Part shown: positions 1,185 through 31,838 of the stretch, piece by piece
How positions within the stretch are numbered: the first letter of the stretch is position 1
Layout of the letters: every line of letters starts with the position of its first letter
Assembly (NCBI GenBank): GCA_963971305.1
Contig: OZ020308.1
Span: forward strand, 36,795,275-36,859,274
Source: Arcuatula senhousia
Taxonomy: Eukaryota; Mollusca; Bivalvia; Mytilida; Mytilidae
Length of the DNA: 64,000 nucleotides
Direction: 5' to 3'
Position numbers and translations under genes: made by a program
The notes under the pieces: generated by a model
Seen by the model: the letters and a program-made list of their open reading frames with translations, nothing else
Database searches by the model: none
Told to the model about the DNA's origin: nothing

Positions 1185-1630
1185 CATTATACCACTGTAG
1201 AACTGTATGTGCTTCATCGACAACAAACAGCTCCACGTCTTTGTAAGACCTTGTAAGCCTCTGATGTCAACATCTGTCTCCATTTATCTACTGCTAGTAT
1301 GGATTCAAGTGATGTGAAGAGAAACTGGTATTCCCCATTTAAAATTCCTCCATCGTCTTTCTCTTTCCCAATGTAAGTTACCTTGAATCCCAACGAATTT
1401 AGATGTTCAGACTGTTCTTTCATTATTGAAACAAGGAGTGAAACAACTAGCACCTTGCATCAAAGGAAATGCTTCTTAGCACACACTCTTTCCACCTCCA
1501 GTTTGAATAGACAACTAAACATCCTTTCTGTGTGTCAGTAACGCATTAAGAGGCTTCAAGAGTTTCTTTCTGAAAGTTTTTGAGGGAACTTATGCCAAAT
1601 CTATCGTATTTTTCATCGTAATCCATATTT
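1185..1630 (-). pseudogene. RecQ-like DNA helicase, broken N-terminal fragment
   Basis: Reading on the minus strand from about 1626, three frames together give the start of a RecQ-type ATPase core. An opening stretch contains FGISSLKNFQKETLEA. A Walker A motif, QTGGGKSVC, lies near 1485-1510. Then comes the segment LVVSLLVSIMKEQSEHLNSL (motif Ia region), followed by FLFTSLESIL and VDKWR, and finally a DEAH box in VVDEAHTVLQW at about 1200-1225. RecQ helicases unwind DNA 3' to 5' using ATP. Here stops and at least two frameshifts separate the motifs, no introns are visible, and the remainder of the helicase is missing, so this is a dead fragment. It may be a processed copy or a piece of a repeat-amplified helicase family. 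The family call is firm from motif order; the exact orthologue is not determinable. Confidence 0.7.
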
Positions 1631-3124: not shown

Positions 3125-3657
3125 AGAGCCGGTGGTGTAGTGGTTAACGCATCGGGCTACTAACACCAAGGTTCGTGGTTCGATCCTCGTCCATTTCATG
3201 AAAATTTCATGAACCAATTTTCCGACTCTCTCTTGACACCATTTGCGAGGATGGTCTTAAGGAACGATGCTAGTCCTTCGGAAGGGACGAAAAAGGTTGT
3301 CCCGTGTATGTGGAGAGCAATACCCAATGCACGTTAAAGACCCCCGTATAGAATTCGATAAGAGTAGGCTCAATGGGAACGCTGACCATAATGGGCCAAC
3401 GTGTGTGGAGAGTGTCACGCTTCATGCACGTAAAAGACCCATTTGTGGACCGCCAAGTAGGGCACCACATAGGCAAAATTTTCTGGTTATACCCACCTCT
3501 CCCCTTTTTCTGTGGTTCTTCAAAATTTACCGGTCCTTTGTTTCCCACCTCGCCCCCATCTTTCATGTATCATCATCAATTCATGCTTTTCATGTTCATC
3601 TCCCGTGAATAACCTATATAGCGTTGCACGGGCGTAAAACAGCAACTCACTCACTCA
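3125..3657 (+). repeat. tRNA-headed SINE with (ACTC)n tail
   Basis: The head resembles a tRNA gene: an A-box-like GGTGTAGTGGTTA at 3133-3145 and a B box GGTTCGATCCT at 3177-3187, which together form an internal RNA polymerase III promoter. The body then joins the same 3' module as the other ACTC elements (from about 3385: GACCATAATGGGCCAACGTG through GTTGCACGGGCGTAAAAC and ACTC repeats). The 5' portion differs from the copies at 8612 or 41805, so this is a separate SINE family that shares a 3' tail with them. The tRNA type is uncertain. No clear target-site duplication was found. Confidence 0.75.
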
Positions 3658-6378
3658 GTTAAATGTTGCAACCGAAAGCTGAATCTTAATATCATTAAAT
3701 TTATTCCCAACATTTATATTGAAGAAAATGTACTAAAAATGACAATAAATGCAATTCAATATATGTACTAGCCATTTATAACAAGTTGTATTATTTTTTG
3801 GAGCTAAAATGATATTAATAAAGTAAGCAAAATTTTATTTGTATAAAACAATGTATTTTCAGGGAAAATCAGTTGATGAATGGTTAACTGTGTTTATCTT
3901 TTGTTTGTATAAATGCATAACTAAATTTTGAGCCAATTATATGTACAGATTAAAAGATTTTTTTTATCTAATCTATATCTTACAATCAGCATTCCTAATT
4001 TACAAACCATATGTTTTTTGTCAATATCCATAGCATCGTTTAATAACTTCATGTTGAACAACTGATTATCGTCAGAGCATGTATTCCACATGATGACCCA
4101 TCATCTTAAATGGGGTGCTTCAACTCCATATTAAGGGTCCATGATCCCAGTCCATTCTCTTTAGCAGAAGCACTAAAACATTTAAATCGACACGTCAAGT
4201 AGTATAATTAATTTATACCATTTCAACATATATCAAAGAAAAAATCAAAATATTGTCTAAACAATAATCTTGCAGATTATATTGTTCATTTTTTAATAGT
4301 TTTAGTATTGGATTGATGTTAGAAATTCATCGACTCTTGTTTTATGATCTTTGATACAGAAATACTATAGCACATTAACACAATCTGATCATGAAAATCA
4401 TGCAAGCAACTGTTGATAAACATTAGATTTTATGATAACTATATATATATAACGGTGCTCTATCACATATAATAGTAATTACTGGTAAATAATTGGGAAA
4501 AAATGAAAATGTGAATACATTAAATCACTGTTTGGAATAAATAAAAGAAAGCAAAAAAGTAAGTTGTTTAAAATGTTCAGTGTTGTTTCTTAAAGTCATC
4601 ACGAAAAAAAACAATTCAGGTATTGTCAGTTCCTTTATGAGTAAAAAGAATGCATACTTACTCGAAGTTTTGAAAATAAGACCTTATTTTTTTATTGGTC
4701 TGGTCGTTCAAAGGATCCATTAATATTATAGATCTGCTTCTTGTATCCAGAATCTGCAATCGTCATGAACATTCATAAGACCCTTTTTTCATCACTTTTG
4801 AAAATTAAAAATTATACACCTTTACAGAAACAAACCGAATTTAAAATAAATTAAAAAAAAACATTAATTATACTATTTATTAGTATTGATAAATGTGAGG
4901 CTTACAAATGAATAACAATATGTTTACAATTTATTGTGAAACTTTATATATGCTCCTGTTATGATTTCGGGATGGAGAGAATTCTGGACCCATTAAGGAT
5001 CTGGGGAACAAATTTACAGAATTAGTACTGTCATTATACATGTAGAAGAAGCATTACACAATGTGGATCTGAATAGTTGCGTTTTGAATATACACCATGG
5101 TACTGTTCAGGAAAGAACGAAAGGTAACCAGATCACATCAATCACAGGAATGTAGTGGACTGAGGGTCGTGTTATGGTATCTACAGATTTGAAATATATA
5201 GTGCGCCATTGGTTTGTAACATTTCCCGTCTTTTCTAATGTAATTGTGACGTTACTCTTGTATAGGCAGCGTAGCCATCTTTTTAACGTTTACCGAATAA
5301 ATACAACGCGAACGCACAAGGTACTTCCTTTGAGTTAAGTTTCATCAAAATCAATCAAGCAGTCTAGGAGAGGTTTCCCTAACAAGGTACATGTATTTGG
5401 ACATACAGACTGACAAGGTGATTCCTATATAGCCCATAACTTTGCTTGTGGGCACATAATCAATGAATAAGTACATACTTAGTAATTTAACTGACTTGAA
5501 AAACTCAACATCATAGATGTTAAGGCTGGATATTGTACCCAACACCTCTAAGCCTGCATCATGCTTTTGGAAAATGAAATCAACTAGTTCTGATTTTAAA
5601 AAAAATATAAATACATTAATATAATTTTATGATTAATGTGTCATTGCCAAAGCTATTTTTAATTCTGTTGCTTTAAGTGGCAAACTTCTAAAGACACAAT
5701 CCAAATTGATTTTTTTTACATTGGGAAAACCCCATACTTCACAGCAATTGGAAAAATGGTCCTTACATAAAAATACTACAACTAAATTAATTTAAAATTA
5801 CTGCTAATACAAATATATAGATAAGGTGCATATCAACGCGACAACAATTTACAGTCACAAATAATTTGTGGAAACAGATGAAAAATATTTGGTAAATCAA
5901 ACACTTTTTATCCGTTTCTAATGCTTGTACAAATATCTAAACTTCTATATAATGCTACAGTGTCATTCCGAAGTAGCGATTTCACATCTTTATCAACCAG
6001 TTGATGCCCCTTACAACAGTTTATAAATTGTGGGGGTTGGCAAGGTTATGACCACCATTGTTTTTCTATGTTTTCCCAGGCTGGGCAATACCCTAAATTT
6101 TCACTGATCATGCTGATTGTCATAATTGTTTGACACACCAACCCCAGTGTTAACTGCCCCATTGTATCCTTCTTGTCGATGGATGCATGGCTCGTCTTCC
6201 TCCACGGGGAGGTACTGGTAGGAATTCTGGAGGTCTTACAGCACAATGCCATGATTACTGAATTCATATTCAAGCCTTCGGGAAAACAACATATCCCCTT
6301 GGGATTACAATTCGGGATATTCCCCTCTATTAACGGCCACAATTGTATCTATATTTTTCTATACTCTTCATACTTATT
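3658..6378. other. no gene seen
   Basis: About 2.7 kb of AT-rich DNA. Only short chance reading frames are present, and no repeat shared with the rest of the window was recognised. Confidence 0.5.
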
Positions 6379-11896: not shown

Positions 11897-12471
11897 CCCG
11901 TACTTGCAACACCAATGGATGGATGTTTGGTGCTGACTGTTTTGTGGATGATATCCCAAAAAGCAATATCAAATACGCGAGGCCTTGGAAGGAATTGTGT
12001 GATAATCATCCCCCACCACGTAAGTCAACAGCAGGTCCGAATAATGATTCAATGGTCGATGAGGATTTGTTTATAATTCCACGAAAATCGTCTTGGACTG
12101 GATTTGGAGCTCCAACCAAAGCTTCAAATCCTCAACCCCCATCAATTTCTCTTTCTTCCAAACAGAGTCAATCGTCTTCCTCAAGGTCGTCATCTGCTGC
12201 TCAACCTGGAAATAGACAGCAGCGACCCTCACAGCCAGGAAGACGCCAGAGTTCATCGCAGCAGACGTCACCGCTTAAAATGCGAAGATCAAAGAAGGCC
12301 GAACGAGATGCAATTTATATGCATAATCGTTTCGGCTCTCTTGGTGACGACATGGAGTCTGATATGGATCTATCGGAAACACCTGTCGACCGTTCACAGA
12401 GCCAGTCTCCACAGAGGAGACGTAGGCGATCTCTCGGTAGACTTTCCGATCCTTCGCAGACTCCAAAATGA
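11897..12471 (+). CDS. LINE ORF1, C-terminal part (5'-truncated)
   Basis: The frame is open from the truncation point, with matching residues RTCN and NGW as in the first copy at about 7680. It ends LGRLSDPSQTPK. An internal ATG at 11923 begins MFGADCF but is not the natural start. The product is about 190 residues, rich in serine, glutamine and arginine (SQSSSSRSSSAAQPGN), with an acidic patch DDMESDMDLSETP near the end. The zinc-knuckle region lies upstream of the truncation and is absent. In the family, ORF1 binds the LINE transcript. Its TGA overlaps the ORF2 ATG (ATGA at 12468-12471), a layout suited to translation by termination and re-initiation. Confidence 0.85.
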
Positions 12472-15400
12472 GTACCATCATTCAATGGAACTGTCGAGGT
12501 CTTAAGGCCAATTTTCTTGAATTACAACTTTTAGTACAATCTTTAGATCCAACTGTTTTTTGTCTTCAGGAAACACACCTCAAGGAAACTGACACCATTT
12601 CCTTGAAAGGTTTTTCTATGTACAGTACGTTTTCTAATACTGAGCGAGCTGCAGGCGGATCCTCCATTTTAGTTAAGGACAGAGTTCTTCATAGTTCGAT
12701 TCCTTTAACTACAGATCTGCAGGCAGTTGCCGTTCGGATTTCATTACATCAAACAGTCACATTATGCTCAGTTTACGTACCACCCAATAATAATTTAACA
12801 TTAGTACAACTTAAGCAATTAACGGACCAGCTTCCTGCTCCATATATGGTATTGGGAGACTTTAATGCTCACAATCCATTGTGGGGTAGCGTTAACATTA
12901 ATGATAAGGGTAAAAAGATTGAAGACTTTTTGTCAAAAGAATCTCTTTGTATCTTCAATGACGGCTCCTCTACTTTTTTACACTCTGGTAATGGAACATA
13001 TTCATCGATTGATCTTTCCATTTGTGATCCTTCTCTTTTAACAGACTTCTCATGGCAAGTCCATGATGATCTCTGCGGAAGTGATCACTTTCCTATCATT
13101 TTAAAAGATCTTTTTGGTGAACCTGAGCAAAGAATTCCTCGTTATAAATTAGAAAAAGCCGATTGGCAAAAATTTTCAATTCTCTGTTCAGAAAAATTAA
13201 GACCAGAACTTTTTACTGAATTTAAAGAACCAATTTCTGTATTCAATGAAACCCTTATCTCTATAGCTGATGAAACAATCCCTAAGACCTCGGCATTTCC
13301 AAAAAAACTTAATAAACCCTGGTTTACCGACGAGTGTGGCAAGGCTATCGGCGATAGAAACAAAGCTCAAAATTATTTTAAAAACCATCAAACTAAAGAA
13401 AATTTAAGTAATTTTAGAATATTTCGGGCAAAGGCAAGACGAACATGCAAACAAACAAGAAGAACATCCTGGAAACAATTCGTATCTGGTTTAACCTCTC
13501 GAACTCCCATGAATAAAATTTGGAACTTCATTCAGAAAATGAAAGGTAAAAACTCAAAATCATCTGTTAAGCATCTTAATGTTGGCAATTCCACTTTAAC
13601 ATCTGAAAAAGATATTGCCAACAAATTAGCTGAGACCTTTGCAAAACATTCATCTTCATCAAATTACAAGCCTGATTTTCAAAAATTTAAACAAACAGCT
13701 GAGAAAACCAAATTAAACTTTAATTCTGACAACTCCGAAAGCTACAACTCTCCTTTTTCTTTGGATGAACTCAAAACTTCTTTAAGTAAAGCACACGATA
13801 CGGCCTGTGGCCCTGACAATATCCACTATCAGCTTCTAAAACATCTTCCTGATATATCGATGAATACTCTTTTAAATTTAATGAACGATGTTTGGATAAA
13901 TGGTAAATTGCCCGAAATATGGAAGCTTGCCACTGTTGTTCCTATCCCTAAACCAGGGAAGGATCATACAGATGCTTCAAACTATCGTCCGATAGCATTG
14001 ACAAGCTGCGTCTGCAAGACTCTTGAACGTATGATCAATGATCGGCTTGTTTGGTTCCTGGAGTCCAATGGACTCATTTCGAATATCCAGTGTGGTTTTC
14101 GCCAAGGCAGGAGCACACAAGATCATTTGGTCCGTTTCGAGTCATTTCTTCGGAACGCTTTCGCGAAGAACGAACATGTGGTGTCTATCTTTTTCGATCT
14201 CGAAAAAGCTTATGACACCACATGGAAGTATGGCATTTTAAAAGATATTTCTGATATGGGGTTGAAAGGAAGGTTGCCGAATTTTTTGGCTGACTTCCTG
14301 TCTGATAGACATTTTAATGTTAAAGTAAATAGAACAATGTCTGAAGAGTTTAATCAGGAAATGGGCGTTCCTCAGGGAAGCATCCTTTCTGTCACTCTCT
14401 TTAGTATCAAAATAAATAGTATTGCCAAAGTGTTGAAAGGTAATATTGAAGGTTCCTTATATGTTGATGATTTTTTAATATGCTACAGTGCCAAAAACAT
14501 GAACACTATTGAAAGGCAATTGCAACTGTGCCTTAATCGAATTGAAAAATGGGCCTCTGTAAACGGTTTTAAGTTTTCAGAGAGTAAAACCGTGGCTATG
14601 CATTTTTGTAAAAAGAGAAAACTCCATCCTGACCCAGATCTTTATTTATATAACAAAAAAATTAAAATGGTTGAAGAAGCGAAATTCCTTGGCGTTCTTT
14701 TTGATAAAAAACTGTCCTTTCTACCCCATATCAAAATGCTAAAATCAAGATGCCTCAAGGCTCTTGATATTTTAAAAGTTGTCTCCAGTACTGACTGGGG
14801 AGCTGATAAATCTGTTCTTTTAAATTTATACAGGTCCCTTGTAAGATCGAAATTGGATTATGGTTCTATTGTATATGGATCAGCTAAAAAGTCTTATTTG
14901 CAAATTTTAGATGCTGTTCATCATCAGGGATTGCGACTTTGCCTCGGTGCATACAGGACATCTCCTATTGAGAGCCTGTATGCGGAGGCAAATGAACCAT
15001 CCCTGAAACATCGTAGAATAAAACTCGGTCTCCAATATGCTACGAAGCTGAAAGCTTTCCCAGGTAACCTTGCCTACGACTGTGTTTTTAACCCACCTCT
15101 AAAAACTGTTTATGAAAAACACGAAAACAAAACTCCTCCATTTGGCATTCGTATTGCACCACATTTAGCTAATCTTAATATTGATTTGGAAACGATAAAA
15201 CCTGTTACATCTTTAAAAGTTCCACCCTGGGAACTTCTAAAACCTGAATTTAATTTTGATCTTCGAAAACATAAAAAGACTGAAACAAATCATTTGCTCA
15301 TTCAACAGGACTATTGTGAAATTAAATCTAAATACCCTGATTTTCTGACTGTTTATACAGATGGTTCTAAAGATGGTGATAGCGTTGCGTCTGCTGCTAT

Positions 15401-15845
15401 CTTGGGTAATAGCACTTCCACCCAACGCCTCCCATCTTCTGCTTCCATTTTTACAGCTGAAGCAAGAGCCATCATTTTAGCCCTTCGTTTAATTGATGCT
15501 TCAGAGCACGCACAATTCTTTATCTGTTCTGATTCTCTCGCTTGTCTTTTGGCAATTGAGAACTGCAAACTAAAACATCCATTAATTAGTAAAATTGTTT
15601 ACATGATTCACCAAATGATGAGAGGTGGTGCAGAATTGATTTTCCTATGGGTACCCAGTCATACTGGTATTCATGGGAATTCAGTCGTGGACAGGGTTGC
15701 GAAGGAAGCCCTTCGCAAACCAATTTCTAAATGTTTTATTCCCTATTCGGACTGCAGAAATGCAATCCGTATATATGTTCAAAGTTTATGGGATGAGGTT
15801 TGGGCTGCCGCTGAGCACAACAAACTTCATGAGTTAAAACCATAG
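12468..15845 (+). CDS. LINE ORF2: endonuclease, reverse transcriptase, RNase H
   Basis: A 1125-codon open frame. Residues 1-220 are an apurinic-type endonuclease with the motifs IQWNCRGLK, QETHLK, YVPPNN, GDFNAHNPLWG, SSIDLSICD and GSDHFPI; it nicks target DNA. Residues 450-740 are a reverse transcriptase with NYRPIAL, GFRQGRST, FFDLEKAYDTTW (motif A), PQGSILS (motif B) and YVDDF (motif C). Residues 960-1100 are RNase H with TDGSKDG, EARAI, CSDSLA and WVPSHTGIHGNSVVDRVA, keeping the D-E-D-D set. The start at 12468 is supported by the ATGA overlap with ORF1 and the same start in the decayed copy. The frame ends at a TAG at 15843, but homologous sequence continues in the same frame to 16145, so this stop is probably a mutation. 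All visible catalytic residues are present, so this is a recently active copy. Confidence 0.93.
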   Translation: MSTIIQWNCRGLKANFLELQLLVQSLDPTVFCLQETHLKETDTISLKGFSMYSTFSNTERAAGGSSILVKDRVLHSSIPLTTDLQAVAVRISLHQTVTLCSVYVPPNNNLTLVQLKQLTDQLPAPYMVLGDFNAHNPLWGSVNINDKGKKIEDFLSKESLCIFNDGSSTFLHSGNGTYSSIDLSICDPSLLTDFSWQVHDDLCGSDHFPIILKDLFGEPEQRIPRYKLEKADWQKFSILCSEKLRPELFTEFKEPISVFNETLISIADETIPKTSAFPKKLNKPWFTDECGKAIGDRNKAQNYFKNHQTKENLSNFRIFRAKARRTCKQTRRTSWKQFVSGLTSRTPMNKIWNFIQKMKGKNSKSSVKHLNVGNSTLTSEKDIANKLAETFAKHSSSSNYKPDFQKFKQTAEKTKLNFNSDNSESYNSPFSLDELKTSLSKAHDTACGPDNIHYQLLKHLPDISMNTLLNLMNDVWINGKLPEIWKLATVVPIPKPGKDHTDASNYRPIALTSCVCKTLERMINDRLVWFLESNGLISNIQCGFRQGRSTQDHLVRFESFLRNAFAKNEHVVSIFFDLEKAYDTTWKYGILKDISDMGLKGRLPNFLADFLSDRHFNVKVNRTMSEEFNQEMGVPQGSILSVTLFSIKINSIAKVLKGNIEGSLYVDDFLICYSAKNMNTIERQLQLCLNRIEKWASVNGFKFSESKTVAMHFCKKRKLHPDPDLYLYNKKIKMVEEAKFLGVLFDKKLSFLPHIKMLKSRCLKALDILKVVSSTDWGADKSVLLNLYRSLVRSKLDYGSIVYGSAKKSYLQILDAVHHQGLRLCLGAYRTSPIESLYAEANEPSLKHRRIKLGLQYATKLKAFPGNLAYDCVFNPPLKTVYEKHENKTPPFGIRIAPHLANLNIDLETIKPVTSLKVPPWELLKPEFNFDLRKHKKTETNHLLIQQDYCEIKSKYPDFLTVYTDGSKDGDSVASAAILGNSTSTQRLPSSASIFTAEARAIILALRLIDASEHAQFFICSDSLACLLAIENCKLKHPLISKIVYMIHQMMRGGAELIFLWVPSHTGIHGNSVVDRVAKEALRKPISKCFIPYSDCRNAIRIYVQSLWDEVWAAAEHNKLHELKP

Positions 15846-18315: not shown

Positions 18316-18598
18316 ATAGATATGCACATCGACACGATATGTTTGAAAAAGTTGTACAATATTATATCCAGAGATTTGAAATTTGATGTTCATAAACTGT
18401 AGATTTACCCCAAATATAAATTAATTACAAAGAAATCGCATTGCAATAATATGGCCATGGACGGATCTAAAATATGACAGACTATTACATATATTTGCGC
18501 AATAATATAGAAGTTATGAAATGTGGAAATGTACGCACCACGACCGAGACATATCGCCGGCACTTTAATAATCTTCAAGTAGAAAACGTCACGTGCAA

Positions 18599-18957
18599 GT
18601 CCCGGATGGCGAATAGGCCCGCAGCAGAGCCTAGCTTGTCGTAAGAGGCGACTAAGGGTATTGGGATTCTAACGTCGGGTCAGTGCTCAGCCATGCGCAG
18701 AGCGACCAAGTGTGTACCCTTGGTGGCTGAATAGGGTGGCCCTCGTCCGCGGGGGTTTTCAGGTCTATAATACGGAAACCCTGACCGCTGACCATAGTGG
18801 GCCAACGTGTGTGGAGAGTGCCACGCTTCATGCACGTAAAAGACCCCTTTGTGGACGGCCAAGTAGTGCACCACATAGGCTAAATTTTTCGCCCCTACCC
18901 ACCTCTCCCCTTTTCTTGTGGTGCTTCAAAATTTACCGGTCCTTTGTGTTCCACCCA
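18599..18957 (+). repeat. SINE-like element, 3'-truncated
   Basis: Starts GTCCCGGATGGCGAATAGG and follows the ACTC family up to the TGTGTTCCACCCAC block, then stops abruptly at about 18957. The tail and the ATCATCATTTCATG block are missing. Confidence 0.85.
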
Positions 18958-21584: not shown

Positions 21585-21589
21585 AAGAT

Positions 21590-21869
21590 TGTAGTGAATT
21601 CTCCCCGTAAGTTCGTTCCGGCAGCCATTACCGATACTTATCGGGATTCATCGTAGACTCAACATCAAGCCTCCATTTGAGATGAGAAACTCTCAAGAGT
21701 TTACGTAGGCTGTTGAAGACATAACCGCGCGATTTAGGAGAGAGACGAAAAGAGGAGAAGACGAGACGATTGAGAGTAGAAGACGAAAGTGTAGACTTGA
21801 CTAGAGGCGGCGAGATAATTAGGTTGACAGGTATTTTAACATTCAGGTCGAACCCATAAAAACACAATA
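21590..21869 (+). repeat. 5' LTR
   Basis: Begins TGTAGTGAATTCTCCCCG and ends AAACACAATA. It matches the LTR at 29314-29590 except for one G/A difference and one 3 bp indel, all seen directly. The exact 3' base is ambiguous by one or two. Confidence 0.95.
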
Positions 21870-21874
21870 TAAAT

Positions 21875-21892
21875 TGGTACTGCGGGTGCCTG
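21875..21892 (+). promoter_or_regulatory. candidate tRNA primer-binding site
   Basis: A TGG (21875) followed by TACTGCGGGTGCCTG lies five bases after the 5' LTR, where minus-strand DNA synthesis would be primed. The complementary tRNA 3' end would finish CAGTACCA, but I cannot name the tRNA. Assigned by position and the TGG start only. Confidence 0.4.
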
Positions 21893-22230
21893 AATTGTTG
21901 ACATACACAACACGAAAAAAATATTTCTCAGCAGACTGCAGCTGCATCCGCCATAAAACCACGTGTTCGCCAGTTGAACACAGATTGATGTAAAGATAAA
22001 AATAGATAAGAGTCATGCAATAAATGACATAGATGTGAATTTCATGAAAAATCAAAAAAACAAGTACACATTAAATAGACAATTTGAGGTGGAATTTTGA
22101 TACATCACTTTGCATCATTGTCCAACACATATTTGATCATATTTTCTGAAATATAAAATTTTTGAGTCAAAGTAAAATCAGTGAAATTGATTTTACAAAT
22201 TAAAGCAATCAATTATTGATTTAAATTAAA

Positions 22231-23616
22231 TTGATTGACAAGATTTCAGAAAAGAAAGAAATTATGGCTGAATCTATGCCCAAATTACAAATCAATGTGT
22301 GTAGCTACGATGACTTGTTGGGTCTGCCATCGGTGGGAAAAGCAACAGCATTTAGAATATGGGAGATGAGAAAAACAATGGACATAACCCCAGAATTGCT
22401 AGCCACCATCCCACACATCAAGATGGAGAAAATAATTCATCTTATTGACTTTTCAACTGCCCAAGATCATGCTGAAAGTTTAAATCTTGAGCCAGATTAT
22501 GAAGAGAATATGGTGGCCATTGCAGAACAACAGCAGGAAATATTAGAGGAGCTTGAAAGAATTCAACAAACCAGCACACTGTTGTTACAAAAACAAATGA
22601 AAGTTGAAGATCTTCAGTCATTGCAGACATCCACACAAAGACCACCAAATTTTGACATTGTTGAAGACCATGGATATGCAATGCCAGATGACAACAATCC
22701 GCAGACAAGTACAAACTCAAGAAGTGTTAAGTTTGCTACATCAACACCAAGACAAGAGACCCAGCAAGCCACAGCCCTATCCATGCCTAGACAAGTGAGC
22801 AGGATAAAGGCCACACCTTTTCAAGAGAGGGAAGAGGAGGTACCAAGAGTATCAGCACCGAGAAGGATAAACCAAGAAGCCATGTCGACAAGACCAAGTC
22901 AACAGTATTTACCCAGACCAGGCCCCACTGTTGATAGGCCAGTACCTACCCAGGCTTACACACCTGCAAGAAACTCAACAAATACACCAATTCGGAGAGA
23001 CAATTTATTTGGACATTCATCAGACCAGATGGAAATACCAATACCATATCAACAGTCTCTCATCGCAGATGCTCAACCCAGGACATTAAATTTTCGAAGC
23101 TCACAGCCCCCACCGACAATGGTTAAATCATTTAAATTTGACGGTTCAGATAAAAGTGAAGATTGGTCATCATTTTTGGTGAAATTTGAAATCTTCGCAG
23201 ATTCATCAAGATGGTGCGACCTTGAGCAAAGGAATCAGCTGTGCTGGTGCCTAACCGGGGCAGCCAGCAGATACGTTACCAACCTCATAAGGCACAATAG
23301 AGATGTGACCTATGAAGAAATCATCGACAAAATGGAGCAAGACAAAGCTTTCCGAGATGTTCCAGACCAATATATTCAGACTCAGATTATTACGAAATTC
23401 CTGCAGGCCCTCAACGACAAAGAAGCAGGGAAGTCAGCGTCTATGTTAAAGCCAAAGACCATTGATGAAGCCTGTCAGCTAGTAAAGCTCAGTCAGCATT
23501 TGGACAGCTCCATTTATGGGTCCAGAGGTAAAAGTCAACATCTAGAACCATTGTGCCAAACAGTTAGACAGAAAGAGGAGAATAAACCTTCGGTGGAGGA
23601 CCAATTAGCCAAGTAA
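22231..23616 (+). CDS. gag: Gag, helix-hairpin-helix plus capsid, stops before zinc knuckle
   Basis: A 461-codon frame; a second ATG at 22264 (MAESMPKLQINV) is the more likely start. Residues 20-75 form a helix-hairpin-helix domain of the ComEA/competence type: INVCSYDDLLGLPSVGKATA, then IPHIKM. This is a fold that grips DNA backbone and is not usual in Gag. Residues 90-135 are a probable coiled coil (AEQQQEILEELERIQQ). Residues 150-300 are a low-complexity Pro/Thr/Gln linker. Residues 300-400 look like the gypsy capsid (KFDGSDKSEDWSSFLVKFEI and LCWCLTGAASRYV). The frame ends at TAA 23614, before the zinc knuckle, which is in another frame. Gag would assemble particles in the cytoplasm. The HhH call rests on the paired LPSVGKA and IPHI motifs. 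Confidence 0.85.
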   Translation: MIDKISEKKEIMAESMPKLQINVCSYDDLLGLPSVGKATAFRIWEMRKTMDITPELLATIPHIKMEKIIHLIDFSTAQDHAESLNLEPDYEENMVAIAEQQQEILEELERIQQTSTLLLQKQMKVEDLQSLQTSTQRPPNFDIVEDHGYAMPDDNNPQTSTNSRSVKFATSTPRQETQQATALSMPRQVSRIKATPFQEREEEVPRVSAPRRINQEAMSTRPSQQYLPRPGPTVDRPVPTQAYTPARNSTNTPIRRDNLFGHSSDQMEIPIPYQQSLIADAQPRTLNFRSSQPPPTMVKSFKFDGSDKSEDWSSFLVKFEIFADSSRWCDLEQRNQLCWCLTGAASRYVTNLIRHNRDVTYEEIIDKMEQDKAFRDVPDQYIQTQIITKFLQALNDKEAGKSASMLKPKTIDEACQLVKLSQHLDSSIYGSRGKSQHLEPLCQTVRQKEENKPSVEDQLAK

Positions 23617-23639
23617 ATGGAGAGCCTGCCTGTCTTCCA

Positions 23640-23846
23640 TGAAACTACCAATACTACCCTACAAGAACTCAAAAGAAAGTTGCCAACTCACAGTCAAGAC
23701 AGTATGGTTCAGAAAAAGGTGGAACGTTCAGATGTTACAACTGTGGAGGACATGGCCATATTGCAAGACACTGCTTAAAGCCAACCCAGCAAAGAGACAA
23801 GTGCCAAGGCAAAACTGACAAAGCAGAGAAGCCTTTAAACAAGTAG
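23640..23846 (+). pseudogene. gag: Gag zinc knuckle, out of frame
   Basis: About 120 bases after the gag stop, a different frame encodes one CCHC knuckle, CYNCGGHGHIARHC (23733-23774), followed by a basic tail and TAG at 23844. Knuckles of this kind bind the element's RNA during packaging. Its place and sequence show that it was the C-terminal end of Gag before a frameshift and the TAA at 23614. Confidence 0.85.
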
Positions 23847-24094
23847 GGGTCGGTCAGAGTGGGATAAAACCGACCCGGGCTGAAAATTATCACCCACCAA
23901 TGATTAATGAAAAAGAAGGAGAGGAAGATAAAAGGCAAGATTGGGAGGTAGGAAGAGGGGAACAGACAAAAAGGTTTGAAACAGCTCTGCATATCACACC
24001 ACAAGTCTACGGCGATGTTCCTGTACCAATGGACACTATCATCGTAGAAAATTCAACAGGTACCAAACAAAAGCAAGGTTCCCGATAATCCCCC

Positions 24095-24715
24095 TTGACG
24101 ATCACCCAGGACAATTTGAAATTAGAAAGTGAAGTGAACAGCAATGAGGTTGAGATGAGACCACCAACCACAGAGAAACAAGATACATGTACTAGCAGGA
24201 CACAATACCCAAATGACAATGAGATTCCTGAAGAGATTATAGATAGTTTAGGAAGAACACTGTCCGTGATGAAGACGGGACACTCAAAAATGCTCAGAGT
24301 TCCAGTATACCTGAACAACAGCAGATTGATAACGGTGTTAGACTCTGCTGCTGAGATGACCATCATTTCTGACAAAGTTTATGAAAGGCTAAAGGAGAAA
24401 CCACCAATTTTATGCCAATCCATTTTGCACGGAGCAGGAAGGGGAATGCAGATGAGCATCATGATGGTAGGTCCAGTTACATTTAAATTAGGGAGCAGAA
24501 GTTACCAACTAGAAGTTTGTGTGGCGCCCATATATGATGACATGTTACTGGGTTTAGACTTTCTAGACGAACAGGAAGCTGAGATGAACTTGAAGAGAAA
24601 TAAAGGAACATTATTATTGCATGAGGAAGAAATCAGAATCTTCTATGGAACAGGACATGCAGTACCAATGGTTGCCAAGGTCTCTTTACCCCCAGAGAAC
24701 AGTAGTTCCGGCTAA
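24095..24715 (+). CDS. pol: retroelement aspartic protease
   Basis: Residues about 65-165 form a retropepsin-like domain. The active-site loop is VLDSAAEMTIIS, with DSA in place of the more common DTG/DSG, and the C-terminal part is DDMLLGLDFLD (the usual LLG-hydrophobic-D signature). The protease would cut the Gag-Pol polyprotein inside particles. The ATG at 24095 is probably not the true start, because protease is normally made as part of a longer polyprotein. Upstream (23850-24094) is decayed linker. The frame ends at 24715, but pol continues in an overlapping frame from about 24690, so there is a frameshift here. All expected active-site positions are present in one-subunit form. Confidence 0.85.
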   Translation: MTITQDNLKLESEVNSNEVEMRPPTTEKQDTCTSRTQYPNDNEIPEEIIDSLGRTLSVMKTGHSKMLRVPVYLNNSRLITVLDSAAEMTIISDKVYERLKEKPPILCQSILHGAGRGMQMSIMMVGPVTFKLGSRSYQLEVCVAPIYDDMLLGLDFLDEQEAEMNLKRNKGTLLLHEEEIRIFYGTGHAVPMVAKVSLPPENSSSG

Positions 24716-25274
24716 CTCAGTGGTCCATGTGAAGGGACGACTAGATGCTAACCTTTTAAGTTTCATCGTAGAACAACCCACAGAAGACTCAACGCCTCTA
24801 ATGGTGCCAAGGTGCTTCTACGAATCGGGTAGCACTACTCTCTGTATTATTAACACATCAGACAATCCCTACACACTGAAAAAAGACCGAGTCATAGCTC
24901 AAGCCAGTCGAGTGGAGCAGATGAAATCTGATGCAACAGTACGAACCCTTCAAGTTAATCTTACCAGGGAGCAGACAGGTCTAAATGAAGAATTGGGTAA
25001 GTTAGTGGATTCAGCCAAGGCACACCTTTCAAAAGGGGAAGGAGACGAACTACAGCAGGTTATTACAGAGTACCAGGATGTGTTCTCCAAAGACCAATTT
25101 GATCTTGGTCAATTTCATCAGGTAGAACATTCAATCGACACCGGGTCAGCTAAACCAATCCATCAAAGGTGGAGACGCACACCAGTTGGGTTTGAGGAAG
25201 ACGAGAAAAAGCACCTCCAAAAACTTTTAGATACTGGAGTCATAGAGCCTTCAACCTCCGAGTGGGCTTCACCA
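24621..25274 (+). pseudogene. pol: pol linker and start of reverse transcriptase, truncated
   Basis: From about 24700 this frame continues pol after the protease with the connecting domain (VPANSVVHVKGRL, VPRCFYESGSTTLCIIN). It then reaches the entry to RT: HQVEHSIDTGSAKPIHQRWR, KKHLQKLLDTGVIEPSTSEW and ASPP. These are the standard gypsy RT N-terminal motifs. The sequence then runs straight into an inverted piece of the LTR, so all RT catalytic motifs and RNase H are missing. The first part of the open frame (24621-24690) overlaps protease and is not coding in this frame. Confidence 0.85.
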
Positions 25275-25360
25275 CCAATTTATATTGTGTTTTTATGGGT
25301 TCGACCTGAATGTTAAAATACCTGTCAACCTAATTATCGCGCCGCCTCTAGTCAAGTCTA
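25275..25360 (-). repeat. inverted fragment of the element's own 5' LTR end
   Basis: This is the reverse complement of 21790-21875, including the LTR/primer-site junction (TATAAATTGG), so it derives from the 5' end of an element. One mismatch is visible (TATCGCGCC against TATCTCGCC). It joins the RT remnant at CCAATTTATA and the gag patch at CTA. Confidence 0.92.
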
Positions 25361-25955
25361 GACAAGTGAGCAGGATAAAGGCCACACCTTTTCAAGAGAG
25401 GGAAGAGGAGGTACCAAGAGTACCGTAAATTGGGATATTTTGGTGTAGGGATATTTTGGCGGTTTTGGATCAAAACGGGCATGTTTAATTTTGGTGTGTT
25501 TTATTTTGGCGTTTTCATAAAACAATGTTTCTTTTCCAATACTTTACATCATTCGTACAATCAAAAGCTATTTGCATTTAACTCCACAGTTCCACCCTTT
25601 TAACATTCATTAGCGTGTTTTTTTTTCAAACCCAAGCTAATTATTATCTGTTTTGGCTTTGAAAAATAACAGCTTTTTGTGAAGTGTTCATTTAAATTTC
25701 ATTGTAAAAATGAAATTAAAGGATTGTTTCCATTGTAACTCATTATCCAACTATTTTTAGTCCACGTACCAACTCTAACAATTGTCTGTAATGCAATTGA
25801 TTCTATGCATTTTTAACATATATCGGTGTATTTAATTTTGGCACATTCAGTGGAGGCGCCAAATAAACCAAAATTAAGCTACATCCAAAATATCCCAATT
25901 TACGGTATCAGCACCGAGAAGGATAAACCAAGAAGCCATGTCGACAAGACCAAGT
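25358..25955 (+). repeat. second copy of 113 bp of gag, split by a MITE
   Basis: Bases 25358-25422 plus 25908-25955 match gag 22787-22899 directly, in the same orientation. The copy is interrupted by the 483 bp element at 25423-25905. At 25955/25956 it joins integrase sequence. Confidence 0.93.
25423..25905. mobile_element. 483 bp TA-flanked MITE
   Basis: The terminal inverted repeats start CCGTAAATTGGGATATTTTG at both ends (21 bp perfect). The element is flanked by TA on each side (25421-25422 and 25906-25907), and the gag source at 22851 has a single TA. A TA target suggests a Tc1/mariner-type helper. It has no coding capacity. Confidence 0.92.
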
Positions 25956-26767
25956 TCCATGCTGGTGCTCCCATGGAGAGAGTACACCTAGATTTCCTTG
26001 GACCCCTCCCAGAAAAACCCAGAGTCATGGTGGATCAGTTCACTAAATGGTGTGAAATTATTCCACTCCCATCGCAGAAAGCAGAAATCACAGCCAAGGC
26101 AGCAGTCAATGAGTTCTTCGCGAGATTTGGATGTCCTTTCACCATCCATACAGACCAAGGCAGAAATTTTGAAGGCAACCTGTTTAAAGCTATATGTGAA
26201 TTTCTCAGGATTAACAAGACCAGGACCACCACATACAGACAATCTGCCAATGGGCAAGTAGAAAGATACAATATAACCTTGATGGATGCAGTTAGATGTT
26301 TTGTCAGTGAAAGTCAACAAGATTGGGGTGAATACCTTCCTCAGTTAGCATGTGCAATAAGATCTTCAGTCAACAGGACAACAGGAATGACACCAAACAA
26401 GATGATGTTGGGAAGAGAAGTGAACCTTCCAGCAGACCTTGTTTTCAAGCCAAGTTCGGATGTACAGTTTGACGATGAGGAAGATTATGTGAGAAAGCTA
26501 ACAACTAGGATGCAGGATGCTCATAGGATTGTAAGGGACACTTTACAGACAAAACAAGAGCTGATGAAAAGAGACTATGATATCAACATGAGAAGGTATG
26601 AGTACAGGCCAGGGGATGCAGTTTACATCTTAGATACAGCACAAGTAAAGAACGGGACAAAAAAGCTGGATGCACCATGGAGAGGACCAGGGATCGTGGT
26701 ACAACGGATGTCCTCATATGTGTACAAAGTGCATATGCGAACCAGGATTGTAGTCATCAATCATGAC
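25956..26767 (+). CDS. pol: integrase (Ty3/gypsy type)
   Basis: The open frame reaches back to 25826, but its first 43 codons come from the MITE and the gag patch, so true integrase begins at about 25956. It holds the DDE catalytic core: D in MERVHLDFLGPL, D in IHTDQGRNFEG and E in SANGQVERYN. The zinc-binding HHCC domain is lost in the deletion. The C-terminal part (YEYRPGDAVYILD, LDAPWRGPGIV) is the usual SH3-like region and runs into VVINHD. Integrase joins the cDNA to chromosomal DNA. The frame is then interrupted by a 612 bp insertion. When that insertion is passed over, the same frame continues into a PHD finger. As it stands it ends at 26788 within the insertion. Confidence 0.93.
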
Positions 26768-26768
26768 A

Positions 26769-27380
26769 CCAGGTTTCTTTCCTTGTAATGCACATGGTCG
26801 ATATCCTCGGTGCTGGATTTGGCTTCCTTGTTCGAACGTTTTGGTTTTGAGTACTTTTCGTTTTCAACATTTTTGGATTTGACCTTCCAATGTTTTGATA
26901 TAAATGCTACTGATGAGAGGTTACTCCTTGAAATATCGATATATAGCATATCCAAATTAACCGTTCATATCCGCGTTTTGGTATTTGTAATTTTGAAACC
27001 ACTGGGCGATAACCGCTGCTGGTGGACCAGAGGTCCCCGAGGGTAATCACAAGCCCGGTCGTCAGACTTGTTTGACACGGTTTACCATAAAATTTCTAAT
27101 GTTTTTGTTGCTTAAATTTTCGATTTTTAAATTCAAAATTGTTTAAAACACCAGGTTTCTTTCCTTGTAATGCACATGGTCGATATCCTCGGTGCTGGAT
27201 TTGGCTTCCTTGTTCGAACGTTTTGGTTTTGAGTACTTTTCGTTTTCAACATTTTTGGATTTGACCTTCCAATGTTTTGATATAAATGCTACTGATGAGA
27301 GGTTACTCCTTGAAATATCGATATATAGCATATCCAAATTAACCGTTCATATCCGCGTTTTGGTATTTGTAATTATGACA
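26769..27380. mobile_element. 612 bp insertion with 226 bp direct terminal repeats
   Basis: Two copies of the same about 226 bp segment (26769-26992 and 27151-27374, identical as far as I can read) flank a unique about 155 bp core. The whole is flanked by ATGACA at 26763-26768 and 27375-27380, a 6 bp target duplication. Direct terminal repeats with a short non-coding core suggest a terminal-repeat retrotransposon in miniature (TRIM). The ends are not TG...CA, so the class is open. Confidence 0.75.
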
Positions 27381-27667
27381 GGATGAAACAATGCAGGGAT
27401 AAAGAACTACCAGATTGGTTATTCGTGTTTCGTCGTAGACTAGCAGCGGGAGAAGATATCACAGTCATAGAGGGACCCTTGTACTGTATATGTTCCAGTG
27501 TAGATGATGGTCGATTTATGATCCAATGTGACAGTTGTAAAGACTGGATGCATGGAGACTGTGTCCAACTAACACAATAAGTTGGGGAGACTTTACAGAA
27601 CTACTTTTGCCCCCGATGCCAGACCCCATGGTTGTATCCTGGTGGGATACAACACAAGTCATCGTAG
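27380..27667 (+). pseudogene. pol: PHD finger fused in frame after integrase, one stop inside
   Basis: The frame resumes exactly where integrase was interrupted. Its first residues, MKQCRDKELPDWL, are the usual end of a gypsy integrase. A PHD finger follows with the eight ligands of a C4-H-C3 cluster: YCIC, CDSCKDW, MHGDC and FCPRC. The block GRFMIQCDSCKDWMHGDC closely resembles PHD fingers of KDM7/PHF8-type proteins, which read trimethylated H3K4 with an aromatic cage including the W. A TAA at 27578 lies between ligands six and seven, and a TAG at 27665 ends the segment. A histone reader at the end of integrase would act like the chromodomain of chromoviruses, guiding integration. The domain call is firm; the targeting role is inferred. 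Confidence 0.85.
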
Positions 27668-27829
27668 CTAACAACAGAAACAGAATTGGAAATGGAAGAT
27701 AGAAGAGAGAAGGATGGGAATGGCAATTTCCTCAAAAAAGTTGAATTAGAGGATGAAAGTTCTAGCGAGGAGGAAAAACGACCCTGGAAAAGGTCCAACA
27801 GATAGGTTCAGGAGGTTAAAGAGGCAAAT

Positions 27830-28747
27830 ATGATGGAATTGTCAGAGGAGGAAGAAGATAGTAGGCCACCCAGGGGAAGGAAAGCCAGTTGCCCCTTGAG
27901 CAATTGTGACTACCAAACCAGAGGGTTGAGGACCCATGTAAATCACATGCACCTTTCAAAGATAATGTGGGACTATCATTCACCCTCAGTTAAACCAGAA
28001 CGGTTCCAAAAGATGAACAAGATCCGGGGAGAGGTGTTGTTTCTGGCAAAGACATTGGTAAAGAGCTCGTCCATAACGGATATACTGATATGGTGCACCG
28101 AGCAGCCAGGACTAATCCCGCGGAAGGCTGGAATTTTAGGGAGGCACATCGAGCAGATGAAGAGCCTGTCTGAAACCCTACTATGGAGGAGACCCCCCTA
28201 TAATAGGTATACTTTAAATCCACCAAACCACACCAGCGTTCTGATCCACTGGAGATACCAGGTTGCCATGCTGCAGCAACTCCCTGAAGAAGCTGTGGAG
28301 ATCTACCTCAACATGGGGAAAGACTATATGAATGATGCAGACAACTTTGTAAGTCAAGCTGGTAGGAAAAGGAAGAGAGATTCAACCCAATTAAGATCAG
28401 TGGTAGTGCGTAAGCAGCAGAAGGTGGGCAGATTAACAGAGGAGCAACAAAATCAGTTCCTTGAACTCATAGGGTCAGAGCGAGTGAGCGCTGTAGGGGA
28501 AATTGGAATGGACAGGACTGCACCAGAGAATGAGTGGCAGGAACAGATGGATTTCCTGGTCAACACCGCTCCCTTTCTACAAGCTGTATATAAACCAATT
28601 ATCTTGTATGTTCGTTCAGCACCAGAGGACCATTACAGTCAACTACTCTACATCATACTTTTAAAAACCTGCTCAAAATATTATGGACCACATCAGAAAT
28701 TCGTACTTCACTGTTTTACGGGAACCCCAAAAATTGTACAACTTTAA
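27830..28747 (+). CDS. C2H2 zinc finger plus TatD-like nuclease, N-terminal part
   Basis: A 305-codon frame in the same phase as integrase and the PHD finger. Stops at 27665 and 27803 separate it from them, with an acidic linker (SSSEEEKRPWKRSNR, SEEEED) between. Residues 20-42 are a C2H2 finger (CPLSNCDYQTRGLRTHVNHMH). Residues 50-180 are unrecognised and helical, followed by a basic RKRKRD. Residues 215-305 match the middle of TatD-family metal-dependent DNases: VSAVGEIGMDRTAPENEWQ, then PIILYVRSAPED and KFVLHCFTGT. The usual metal-binding HxH at the domain start is not visible, and the next conserved His is Tyr (ILYVR). TatD enzymes trim DNA 3' to 5'. The frame breaks at 28745 within the domain. 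Confidence 0.8.
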   Translation: MMELSEEEEDSRPPRGRKASCPLSNCDYQTRGLRTHVNHMHLSKIMWDYHSPSVKPERFQKMNKIRGEVLFLAKTLVKSSSITDILIWCTEQPGLIPRKAGILGRHIEQMKSLSETLLWRRPPYNRYTLNPPNHTSVLIHWRYQVAMLQQLPEEAVEIYLNMGKDYMNDADNFVSQAGRKRKRDSTQLRSVVVRKQQKVGRLTEEQQNQFLELIGSERVSAVGEIGMDRTAPENEWQEQMDFLVNTAPFLQAVYKPIILYVRSAPEDHYSQLLYIILLKTCSKYYGPHQKFVLHCFTGTPKIVQL

Positions 28748-29011
28748 TTTGGAACCACCATTTCGAAAACACCTATTTTGGATTTACCCATCTGAGCACT
28801 AAATATGATGAGACACAGAAGGAAGCACTCTGCCTGATACCTGCAAACCGACTTCTGCTGGAGACAGATGCCCCCTCCAGGAATCACCTCCAACAGCCCG
28901 ATATATATTGGGGAGACCGCTAGAGCAGTGGCCAGGGTCAGAGGGGAAACAGTTGAACGGATTTGTCGTTCGACCACTGTTAATACAGCTTCCTTATTTG
29001 GATTGCATTAA
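28747..29011 (+). pseudogene. TatD-like nuclease C-terminal part, two frameshifts
   Basis: Right after the previous frame ends, a second frame (28747-28920) gives YFGFTHLSTKYDETQKEAL and IPANRLLLETDAPS. The latter contains ETD, the conserved catalytic Asp motif of TatD enzymes. A third frame (28919-29011) gives the terminal helix ARAVARVRGETVERI and NTASLFGL, then TAA. The order and spacing are as in intact family members, so only two small indels and no large loss are needed to explain the break. The end lies 290 bases before the polypurine tract, so the domain is part of the element. Confidence 0.82.
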
Positions 29012-29300
29012 CTCATCGTAGAAGCCAACAACAATTACAGAAGATGTACAAAGTTTAAGTTTATGCCAATTTTTTTTTCACAAACCTTGTTGATCAGAGG
29101 AACTTATCAACTAGTTAATTGAGAGCTGGAACGCTTTATTTTAGTTTATTGATTATATTAACCAATTAATTGAGAATTGAAACGCTTTATTTTCATATTT
29201 TTTATTGATCATATATTCACGTTAACTGTTCAGAATTCACTAGAAGAACATTACTGTCCAGCCAACCTTTATGTCCAGCGGGTAGCACCCATCATTTTGT

Positions 29301-29313
29301 AGAGAGGGGAGAG
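29301..29313 (+). promoter_or_regulatory. polypurine tract
   Basis: AGAGAGGGGAGAG directly abuts the 3' LTR start (TGTAG at 29314), the expected plus-strand primer site of LTR elements. Confidence 0.9.
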
Positions 29314-29590
29314 TGTAGTGAATTCTCCCCGTAAGTTCGTTCCGGCAGCCATTACCGATACTTATCGGGATTCATCGTAGACTCAACATCAAGCCTCCAT
29401 TTGAAATGAGAAACTCTCAAGAGTTTACGTAGGCTGTTGAAGACATAACCGCGCGATTTAGGAGAGAGACGAAAAGAGAAGACGAGACGATTGAGAGTAG
29501 AAGACGAAAGTGTAGACTTGACTAGAGGCGGCGAGATAATTAGGTTGACAGGTATTTTAACATTCAGGTCGAACCCATAAAAACACAATA
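29314..29590 (+). repeat. 3' LTR
   Basis: Same sequence as 21590-21869 apart from A for G in CCATTTGAAATG and absence of three bases in GAAAAGAGGAGAAG. It is followed by AGAT, part of the target duplication. Confidence 0.95.
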
Positions 29591-29594
29591 AGAT

Positions 29595-31195: not shown

Positions 31196-31450
31196 GTCCC
31201 GTGCGGGGCCCGGGTGGCGAATAGGCCCGCAGCAGAGCCTAGCTTGTCGTGAGAGGCGACTAAGGGTCTTGGGATTCTGATGTCGGGTCAGTGCTCAGCC
31301 ATGCGCAGAGCGACCAAGTGTGTACCCTAGGTGGCTGAATAGGGTGGCCCTCGTCCGCGGGGGTTGTCAGGTCTATAATACGGAAACCCTGACCGCCGAC
31401 CATAGTGGGCCAACGTGTGTGGAGAGTGCCACGCTTCATGTACGTAAAGG
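31196..31450 (+). repeat. SINE-like element, 5' half
   Basis: Starts GTCCCGTGCGGGGCCCGG like the full copies and stops after CTTCATGTACGTAAA at about 31450. Confidence 0.9.
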
Positions 31451-31540
31451 ATTTTTGTAAAAAAATATCGCTCGCGAAGCGACCGCAATTTACAAAAAGG
31501 TTTTTTGGGGTTCTTAGTTCATTTCAGGCAATGTTCTTTT

Positions 31541-31838
31541 AGTGAGTGAGTGAGTTGGTGTTTTACGCCCGTGCAACGCTATATAGGTTATTAACAGGCG
31601 ATGAACATGAAAAGGATGGTAGAATGAACATGAAATGATGATGATAAATGAAATATTGGGATGGGGTGGGACACAAAGGACAGGTAAATTTTGAAGAACC
31701 ACAGGAAAAGGGGAGAGGTGGGTAGGGGCGGAAAATTTAGTCTATGTGGTGCACTACTTGACGGTCCACAAAGGGGTCTTTTACGTGCACGAAGCGTGGC
31801 ACTCATCACACACGTTTGCCCACTATGGTCGGCGGTTG
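31541..31838 (-). repeat. SINE-like element, 3' half, inverted
   Basis: On the plus strand it begins with GAGT repeats (the inverted ACTC tail) and runs through GTTTTACGCCCGTGCAACG to GGTCGGCGG, then a T-run. It lies 90 bp from the 5' half of another copy in the opposite direction. Confidence 0.9.

What the first reader, a model, noticed from the sequence alone, without database searches (positions are those of the whole stretch)
25956..29011. LTR retrotransposon whose pol runs on into PHD, C2H2 and TatD-like nuclease domains
Seen: integrase, a complete C4HC3 PHD cluster, an acidic linker, a C2H2 finger and the first TatD motifs lie in the same reading phase once the 612 bp insertion (a multiple of three) is passed over. 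Only three stop codons (27578, 27665, 27803) interrupt before the frame breaks at 28745. The polypurine tract and 3' LTR follow. Known: chromoviruses carry a chromodomain after integrase, and TatD is a 3'-5' DNase family. Inferred: one ancestral polyprotein with a chromatin reader and a nuclease able to process cDNA ends or target DNA. I do not know of a described gypsy lineage with this set.
Basis: partly seen in the sequence, partly recalled or inferred. Interest (0 to 1): 0.88.

Follow-up and report, generated by a model that had tools for sequence, protein, structure and literature searches.

The report
Retrotransposon with PHD integrase and nuclease
This is a decayed copy of a retrovirus-like jumping gene whose relatives carry a chromatin-reading finger on the integrase and, where a virus would keep its envelope gene, a separate gene for an enzyme of the DNA-cutting TatD family.

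Summary
The domains are real. Window 21590-29590 is a Ty3/gypsy element (LTRs 98% identical, 4-bp target duplication) with integrase, PHD, C2H2 and TatD in that order. It is broken: reverse transcriptase is missing, a 612-bp insert follows the integrase, and TatD lacks motif I. The same genome holds relatives with open frames. In them pol is PR-RT-RNaseH-IN-PHD and stops just after the PHD. C2H2 + helical module + TatD is a separate ORF3 in the env position, usually behind a splice-acceptor-like site. So the single polyprotein is not supported; the shared phase is local accident. Catalytic residues persist across copies 29-48% identical; close copies show low dN/dS. The predicted fold is a TatD barrel. 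Lineages without a visible PHD also carry TatD ORF3, and one PHD clade has another ORF3 tail, so TatD looks older than the PHD. IN-PHD pols occur in Pinctada, Haliotis and Ostrea. Closest known kind: exonuclease ORF3 of bdelloid LTR elements (PMC5408684). My searches found no described PHD- or TatD-bearing LTR element.

The parts
21590..21869 (+). 5' LTR (TGTAGTG...ACAATA), preceded by target duplication AGAT at 21586-21589
   Evidence: 98% identical to 29314-29590
22225..23616 (+). gag open frame (463 aa)
   Evidence: matched in relatives
23643..23846 (+). gag zinc knuckle
   Evidence: zf-CCHC 8.5e-4, just below Pfam cut-off
24089..24715 (+). aspartic protease
   Evidence: gag-asp_proteas 7.4e-7
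24594..25273 (+). linker up to where the RT should begin
   Evidence: matches the stretch before RT in relatives
25274..25955 (+). rearranged stretch in place of RT-RNase H: inverted LTR/PBS piece, gag pieces, about 485-bp MITE-like insert
25956..26767 (+). integrase core and C-terminal part
   Evidence: rve 1.2e-9; 93% identical to L009
26768..27379 (+). later 612-bp insertion with two 231-bp direct repeats, ATGAC duplication at 26763-26767 and 27375-27379
27482..27637 (+). PHD finger at the end of pol, interrupted by a stop at 27578 that L009 lacks
   Evidence: PHD 2.2e-8
27665..27667 (+). natural stop codon of pol (shared with L009, L011, L012)
27668..27889 (+). start of ORF3 with acidic linker; acceptor-like site present in L009 and L010 is missing here; stop at 27803 that L009 lacks
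27890..27952 (+). C2H2 finger C-X4-C-X9-H-X4-H
   Evidence: conserved in ORF3 alignments A1 and A2
27956..28405 (+). conserved helical module of ORF3 (approximate limits)
28436..28738 (+). TatD, middle part; motif I (HxH) missing by deletion just upstream
   Evidence: TatD_DNase 4.5e-10
28871..29008 (+). TatD, C-terminal part in another phase
   Evidence: 3.9e-4 (below cut-off)
29301..29313 (+). polypurine tract
   Evidence: sequence
29314..29590 (+). 3' LTR, followed by target duplication AGAT at 29591-29594

Best explanation
A decayed copy of a Ty3/gypsy lineage with three ORFs: gag; pol = PR-RT-RNaseH-IN-PHD; and ORF3 = C2H2 finger + helical module + group II (HxH) TatD domain in the env position. 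Shown: anatomy, conservation, separate frames, low dN/dS in TatD. Inferred: ORF3 is translated from a spliced subgenomic RNA, as retroviral env is. The PHD, whose best matches are histone-H3-reading fingers, tethers the integrase complex to marked chromatin, doing the job of the chromodomain in chromoviruses. The C2H2/helical module brings TatD to the element's nucleic acid, where its 3' exonuclease and/or AP endonuclease activity cleans or repairs cDNA before integration.
For: 18 of 20 fetched loci hold IN, PHD and C2H2 matches (17 with all in one orientation and order); 16 of the 18 have the TatD part in the stretch too. Pfam on open ORFs: three pols with RT, RNase H, IN, PHD; four ORF3 with TatD at 1e-30 to 2.9e-38. 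LTR pairs 96-100% identical found for 5 of 7 loci tried; 4-bp duplications read at three. Frames of pol and ORF3 equal in 9 of 18, different in 9; spacing 239/242/237/243 in near-copies. Acceptor-like site with at least 12 of 16 pyrimidines upstream of the first ATG in 10 of 14 ORF3 versus 5.3% of 1200 control windows. L067's ORF3 has no ATG ahead of its C2H2-helical module but an acceptor-like site. TatD dN/dS 0.007/0.095, 0.002/0.071, 0.002/0.027, 0.008/0.077. H394, H525, H559 invariant and H396, E489, D610 at least 90% in 25 sequences. Foldseek to a TatD enzyme 3.9e-14, TMt 0.82. 51 of 64 hits carry rve and PHD. PHD matches PHF2, DIDO1, CXXC1, PHF8, BPTF. TatD activities: PMC10085689, abstract and passages.
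Against: No transcript was available, and no shared splice donor was found in five leaders. In the AT-rich window background 14.9% of 1500 140-base windows reach the same acceptor score; L041, L044, L045 and L050 of 14 do not reach it with the first ATG (L044 and L045 do with a later ATG). One PHD clade has ORF3 without TatD and two of ten downstream pieces show no ORF3, so TatD is not indispensable. No nuclease, histone-binding or targeting data exist. dN/dS rests on few substitutions, and four of the five close pairs come from one subfamily. Some loci carry indels, so the 9:9 frame count is not clean.
Confidence: 0.75

Rival explanations
1. One pol polyprotein running through PHD, C2H2 and TatD, with the stops as later decay.
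For: Same phase in the window and in 9 of 18 relatives.
Against: Stop right after the PHD in 16 of 18 relatives, the other two stopping earlier; tail of 14 residues or fewer after the last PHD cysteine in 49 of 50 IN-PHD proteins; spacing and frame relation vary among near-copies whose ORF3 stay open.
Confidence: 0.04
2. ORF3 is made by stop readthrough or reinitiation from the pol mRNA rather than by splicing.
For: ORF3 starts close behind the pol stop in several copies; no shared donor was found.
Against: Variable phase and spacing, acceptor-like sites near the ORF3 start, L067 ORF3 without an ATG ahead of its C2H2-helical module.
Confidence: 0.15
3. TatD region is a host gene (TATDN-like) or retrocopy inserted next to this copy.
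For: Animals have TATDN genes (PMC10085689); the genome's own TatD genes could not be listed (PF01026 search did not complete).
Against: Present at the same place in many diverged copies, inside LTRs where these were found, and in several IN lineages.
Confidence: 0.02
4. TatD acts on host nucleic acid (sensor ligands, R-loops, silencing RNAs) rather than on the element's cDNA.
For: ORF3 is separate from pol, so it need not be packaged; TatD enzymes are reported in varied roles (PMC10085689, passages).
Against: No direct evidence either way; C2H2 and helical module suggest delivery to nucleic acid but not which.
Confidence: 0.3

Closest known systems
Vesta and Juno LTR retrotransposons of bdelloid rotifers with DEDDy exonuclease ORF3 (PMC5408684; abstract and passages seen)
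   Same: LTR element with gag, pol and an env-position ORF3 coding for a nuclease-like protein; the authors state ORF3s in LTR retrotransposons are typically expressed from spliced messages
   Different: Nuclease is TatD (metal-dependent TIM barrel), not DEDDy; C2H2 plus helical module in front; PHD on integrase; no dUTPase matched in three pols (one weak dUTPase-like match, E 0.017, in a window piece)
Chromoviruses (Ty3/gypsy with chromodomain behind the integrase; recalled; title and abstract start of PMC2864245 seen in a listing)
   Same: Chromatin-reader domain fused behind the integrase
   Different: Reader is a PHD finger; no chromodomain matched in three pols
PHD-bearing CR1-like LINEs (Kapitonov and Jurka 2003; seen only as a reference title in PMC5408684; paper not held)
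   Same: PHD finger captured by a retrotransposon
   Different: LINE; place and protein differ (recalled)
TATDN2/TATDN3, YcfH, YjjV: group II TatD enzymes (PMC10085689, passages)
   Same: HxH motif, fold and metal ligands; an extended N-terminal region, as reported for TATDN2
   Different: Encoded by a mobile element, with C2H2 and a helical module

Membership tests
Ty3/gypsy (Metaviridae) LTR retrotransposon | LTRs with short target duplication, polypurine tract | tested here: met
Ty3/gypsy (Metaviridae) LTR retrotransposon | pol order PR-RT-RNase H-IN | tested here: met
   in L015, L018, L028; the window itself lacks RT
Chromovirus | chromodomain C-terminal to integrase | tested here: not met
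   PHD there, no chromodomain match at E 0.05 in three pols
TatD nuclease, group II | HxH motif and conserved E, H, H, D metal ligands | tested here: met
   for relatives; window copy lacks HxH
TatD nuclease, group II | TIM-barrel fold | tested here: met
   (predicted model of L015 ORF3)
TatD nuclease, group II | nuclease activity | not testable with these tools
   no assay
Env-bearing gypsy (errantivirus-like) | ORF3 encodes a membrane fusion glycoprotein | tested here: not met
   ORF3 carries TatD or an unmatched tail; transmembrane segments were not scanned for
Env-bearing gypsy (errantivirus-like) | ORF3 expressed by splicing | tested here: inconclusive
   acceptor-like sites found, shared donor not
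Bdelloid Vesta/Juno | dUTPase between PR and RT, DEDDy or GDSL ORF3 | tested here: not met
   (three pols, four ORF3)

The most novel reading that the evidence does not exclude
An old invertebrate gypsy lineage uses ORF3 as an effector slot: a conserved C2H2-helical carrier delivers an exchangeable tail, by default a TatD nuclease kept by selection, replaced once by another small domain. The lineage later added a PHD reader to its integrase that steers insertion towards H3K4-methylated promoters, the opposite of chromoviruses.
Probability: 0.3. Interest if true: 0.85.

Novelty: new variant of a known kind. Interest (0 to 1): 0.72.

Why it matters
A TatD domain that keeps its metal ligands in a retroelement bears on an open question: what captured nucleases do for retrotransposons. 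The PHD on the integrase offers a test of chromatin-guided integration in animals outside chromoviruses. Bivalve and gastropod annotations hold such proteins as 'hypothetical' or 'uncharacterized', so some TatD or PHD gene counts in molluscs may be element genes (inference).

Tried and rejected
Single polyprotein: rejected. Host gene in one copy: rejected. Window piece against the protein collection: 612 candidates, none significant. IMG/VR: no relative with the window piece or the ORF3 profile. Phages: no match. GTDB genomes: five bacterial loci only. Splice donor: donor-like words in the leaders of five loci are not shared between subfamilies. The alternative ORF3 tail looked ubiquitin-like by eye, but Pfam gave no support, nor did PDB for the one tail tried, so it is left unnamed. 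A TatD tree put ORF3 and metagenome relatives on one side of the bacterial proteins (91/74, not strong), but no animal TATDN could be included. The PF01026 search of the own genome did not complete, so host TatD genes were not compared. My H1 pattern was badly written and missed most true matches; the aligned histidine (H525) comes. In one search the first-ATG rule misplaced the start for L044 and L045. In one search the 'best acceptor' column picked sites inside coding sequence for L009, L011, L012 and L014-L017; the site before ORF3 was seen directly in printed sequence for L009 and L015, L014 and L016, not for L011, L012 and L017. Papers: seven searches aimed at PHD- or TatD-bearing LTR elements listed none whose title or abstract start describes one; of the papers listed there I looked into only PMC3286476 and PMC5408684 (passages). 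Searches were wider. Only open-licence PMC text is held.
Full report
What is in the window. Two LTRs (21590-21869 and 29314-29590, 98% identical) bounded by the 4-bp duplication AGAT enclose gag, protease, integrase, a PHD finger, a C2H2 finger and TatD pieces, then a polypurine tract. The reverse transcriptase is replaced by a rearranged stretch made of an inverted LTR/PBS piece, gag pieces and a MITE-like insert. A later 612-bp insertion with two 231-bp direct repeats and an ATGAC duplication sits after the integrase.

Relatives in the same genome. The genome (1.04 Gb, 1803 contigs, unnamed; that it is a mollusc is inference) gave 97 matches to the C2H2-TatD piece (127 of 191 candidates scored) and 153 to the integrase-PHD tail (150 of 1397 candidates scored); both are lower bounds by the tool's own note. 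I read 20 ten-kb loci (L009-L028). 18 of the 20 have integrase, PHD and C2H2 matches; in L022 the integrase match is inverted, so 17 are in one order and orientation. 16 of the 18 have the TatD part in the stretch as well; in L014 and L019 it does not appear there. L025 and L027 are the two misses. A further 20 loci were requested but not obtained.

Three ORFs, not one polyprotein. In L015 pol is an open frame of 1667 codons with protease, RT, RNase H, H2C2, rve and PHD, and ORF3 (659 codons from its first ATG) has a full TatD domain at 2.9e-38; L018 and L028 agree, L018's pol frame stopping inside the PHD. In 16 of 18 loci pol runs to the last PHD cysteines (one of them mutated in L026) and then stops; L010 and L018 stop earlier. 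The pol frame and the C2H2 frame are equal in 9 and different in 9 of 18 loci, some of which carry indels. Among near-identical L020-L023 the distance from PHD end to ORF3 ATG is 239, 242, 237 and 243, with ORF3 open in all four. The window's stop at 27665 is this natural pol stop; those at 27578 and 27803 are not seen in L009. L009 and L010 have an acceptor-like CATTTCAG behind the pol stop which the window lacks.

Splicing. A site with at least 12 pyrimidines of 16 before YAG and no AG just before it lies within 140 bases upstream of the first ATG of ORF3 in 10 of 14 ORF3 tested (L013, L015, L018, L020, L028, L046, L047, L048, L049, L051). The four misses are L041, L044, L045 and L050; L044 and L045 reach 14 and 12 if a later ATG is used. 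5.3% of 1200 windows at positions 1500-5200 of eight loci, lying mostly in pol, and 14.9% of 1500 windows from about 33.5-63.1 kb of the window reach that score. The 14 include close pairs (L044 and L045), so they are not all independent. In L067 the first in-frame ATG of ORF3 lies behind the C2H2-helical module, 18 codons before HxH, while an acceptor-like CTCTCTTTTGCAG stands near the start of the frame, as if the start codon came from another exon (read by eye). I found no shared donor in five leaders. Splicing is thus likely, not shown.

The nuclease. Alignment of seven ORF3 (29-48% identity to L015, except L016, nearly identical) keeps the HxH, E, H, H and D positions. In 25 sequences including metagenome proteins and L041, H394, H525 and H559 are invariant, and H396, E489 and D610 are at least 90%. 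PDB sequences: YcfH 3e-14. The 25-sequence AlphaFold model (mean pLDDT 73.9; blocks of the TatD part 76-97) matches TatD enzymes, best 3.9e-14 with TM 0.82 by target. The seven-sequence model was poor (pLDDT 55.3) but matched the same fold. Close copies give TatD dN/dS of 0.007/0.095, 0.002/0.027, 0.008/0.077, 0.002/0.071 and 0/0.011; four of these five pairs are within the L020-L023 subfamily and share sequences. The N-terminal module gives 0.003/0.029, 0.006/0.027, 0.005/0.023, 0.007/0.019 and 0.011/0.031, a weaker constraint. dS is saturated in the four more distant pairs. HxH puts ORF3 in group II with TATDN2/TATDN3 (PMC10085689, passages). The human members tested there, TATDN1 and TATDN3, show 3' exonuclease and AP endonuclease activity, and the three E. 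coli paralogs are AP endonucleases (abstract).

The PHD. The window PHD matches PHF2, DIDO1, CXXC1, PHF8 and BPTF fingers, best 4e-10; that these read H3K4 methylation is recalled. In the last protein search 51 of 64 hits carry both rve and PHD, with named hits from Pinctada imbricata, Haliotis rufescens and Ostrea edulis; two others come from contigs filed as bacteria (Candidatus Thiodiazotropha ex Lucinoma, Sedimenticola), presumably host DNA. A pattern found the PHD in 51 of the 64 proteins: 50 of the 51 pols (P0097 was missed) and the Peronospora protein P0119, which is no pol. All 51 keep the tryptophan and 50 of 51 the methionine that in such fingers line the methyl-lysine cage (recalled). 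49 of the 51 end within 14 residues of the last cysteine; the two longer tails, 63 and 664, I take to be P0091 and P0119, hence 49 of 50 pols.

Modules and history. Downstream pieces of ten other IN copies, chosen by me, give: TatD ORF3 in L048 (frame broken within TatD), L050 (runs off the piece) and L051; ORF3 with the same N-terminal module but another short tail in L044-L047 and L049; nothing recognisable in L042 and L043. L041, L067 and L068 belong to lineages in which I see no PHD behind the integrase, by eye, yet they have C2H2-type fingers and TatD. On an integrase tree of 27 rows the copies with the other tail form one supported clade (95/93, with L062, whose ORF3 was not examined) nested among TatD carriers, with the PHD-less rows outside (the root is the midpoint and long branches meet at the base, so that part is weak). 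The simplest reading is that TatD came first, PHD later, with one replacement of TatD. The TatD tree separates L041/L067/L068 (96/92) from the rest in the same way.

Other organisms. The ORF3 profile finds 24 proteins (E from 4.5e-241 to 2.0e-61; 23 with a listed TatD domain) well apart from the other 30 of 54 hits; 19 of the 24 have a longest contig under 30 kb, and the one with a named organism is from Argopecten irradians. Only the 7993 candidates sharing most words were scored. Their genomic neighbours could not be read.

Mechanism. Shown: anatomy, conservation, separate frames, low dN/dS. Inferred: spliced ORF3; PHD steering of integration; TatD action on the element's cDNA ends or abasic sites. 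The rival that it acts on host nucleic acid is open.

Literature. Bdelloid Vesta and Juno elements carry a DEDDy exonuclease ORF3, and the authors state that ORF3s in LTR retrotransposons are typically expressed from spliced messages (PMC5408684, abstract and passages). A survey of bivalve transposons has no word beginning with PHD or TatD in its held main text (PMC10294476). Searches for PHD- or TatD-bearing LTR elements listed no description; the library holds open-licence papers only, and Repbase was not searchable.

Noticed in passing
L027 2070-8359: LTRs of 251 bp, 100% identical, around a single 1472-codon frame with gag, protease and the C2H2-helical module but no RT, integrase or TatD matched: a young non-autonomous relative or derivative.
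   Followed up: partly
window 26768-27379: 612-bp insert with two 231-bp direct repeats (99.6%) around 151 bp and a 5-bp duplication: TRIM-like or 1.6 copies of a 382-bp unit.
   Followed up: no
window 25421-25907: About 485-bp MITE-like insert with 40-bp inverted ends (87.5%) inside a transplanted gag piece.
   Followed up: no
window 12441-15845: 1134-codon open frame that looks like a LINE with endonuclease, RT and RNase H by eye.
   Followed up: no
L044-L047, L049: ORF3 tail of roughly 70-100 residues in place of TatD, without Pfam match where scanned (L044, L046, L047, L049); the L049 tail had no significant PDB match.
   Followed up: partly
window 18588-18956 and 31196-31836: Direct and inverted copies of a repeat, 90-95% alike, on both sides of the element.
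   Followed up: no
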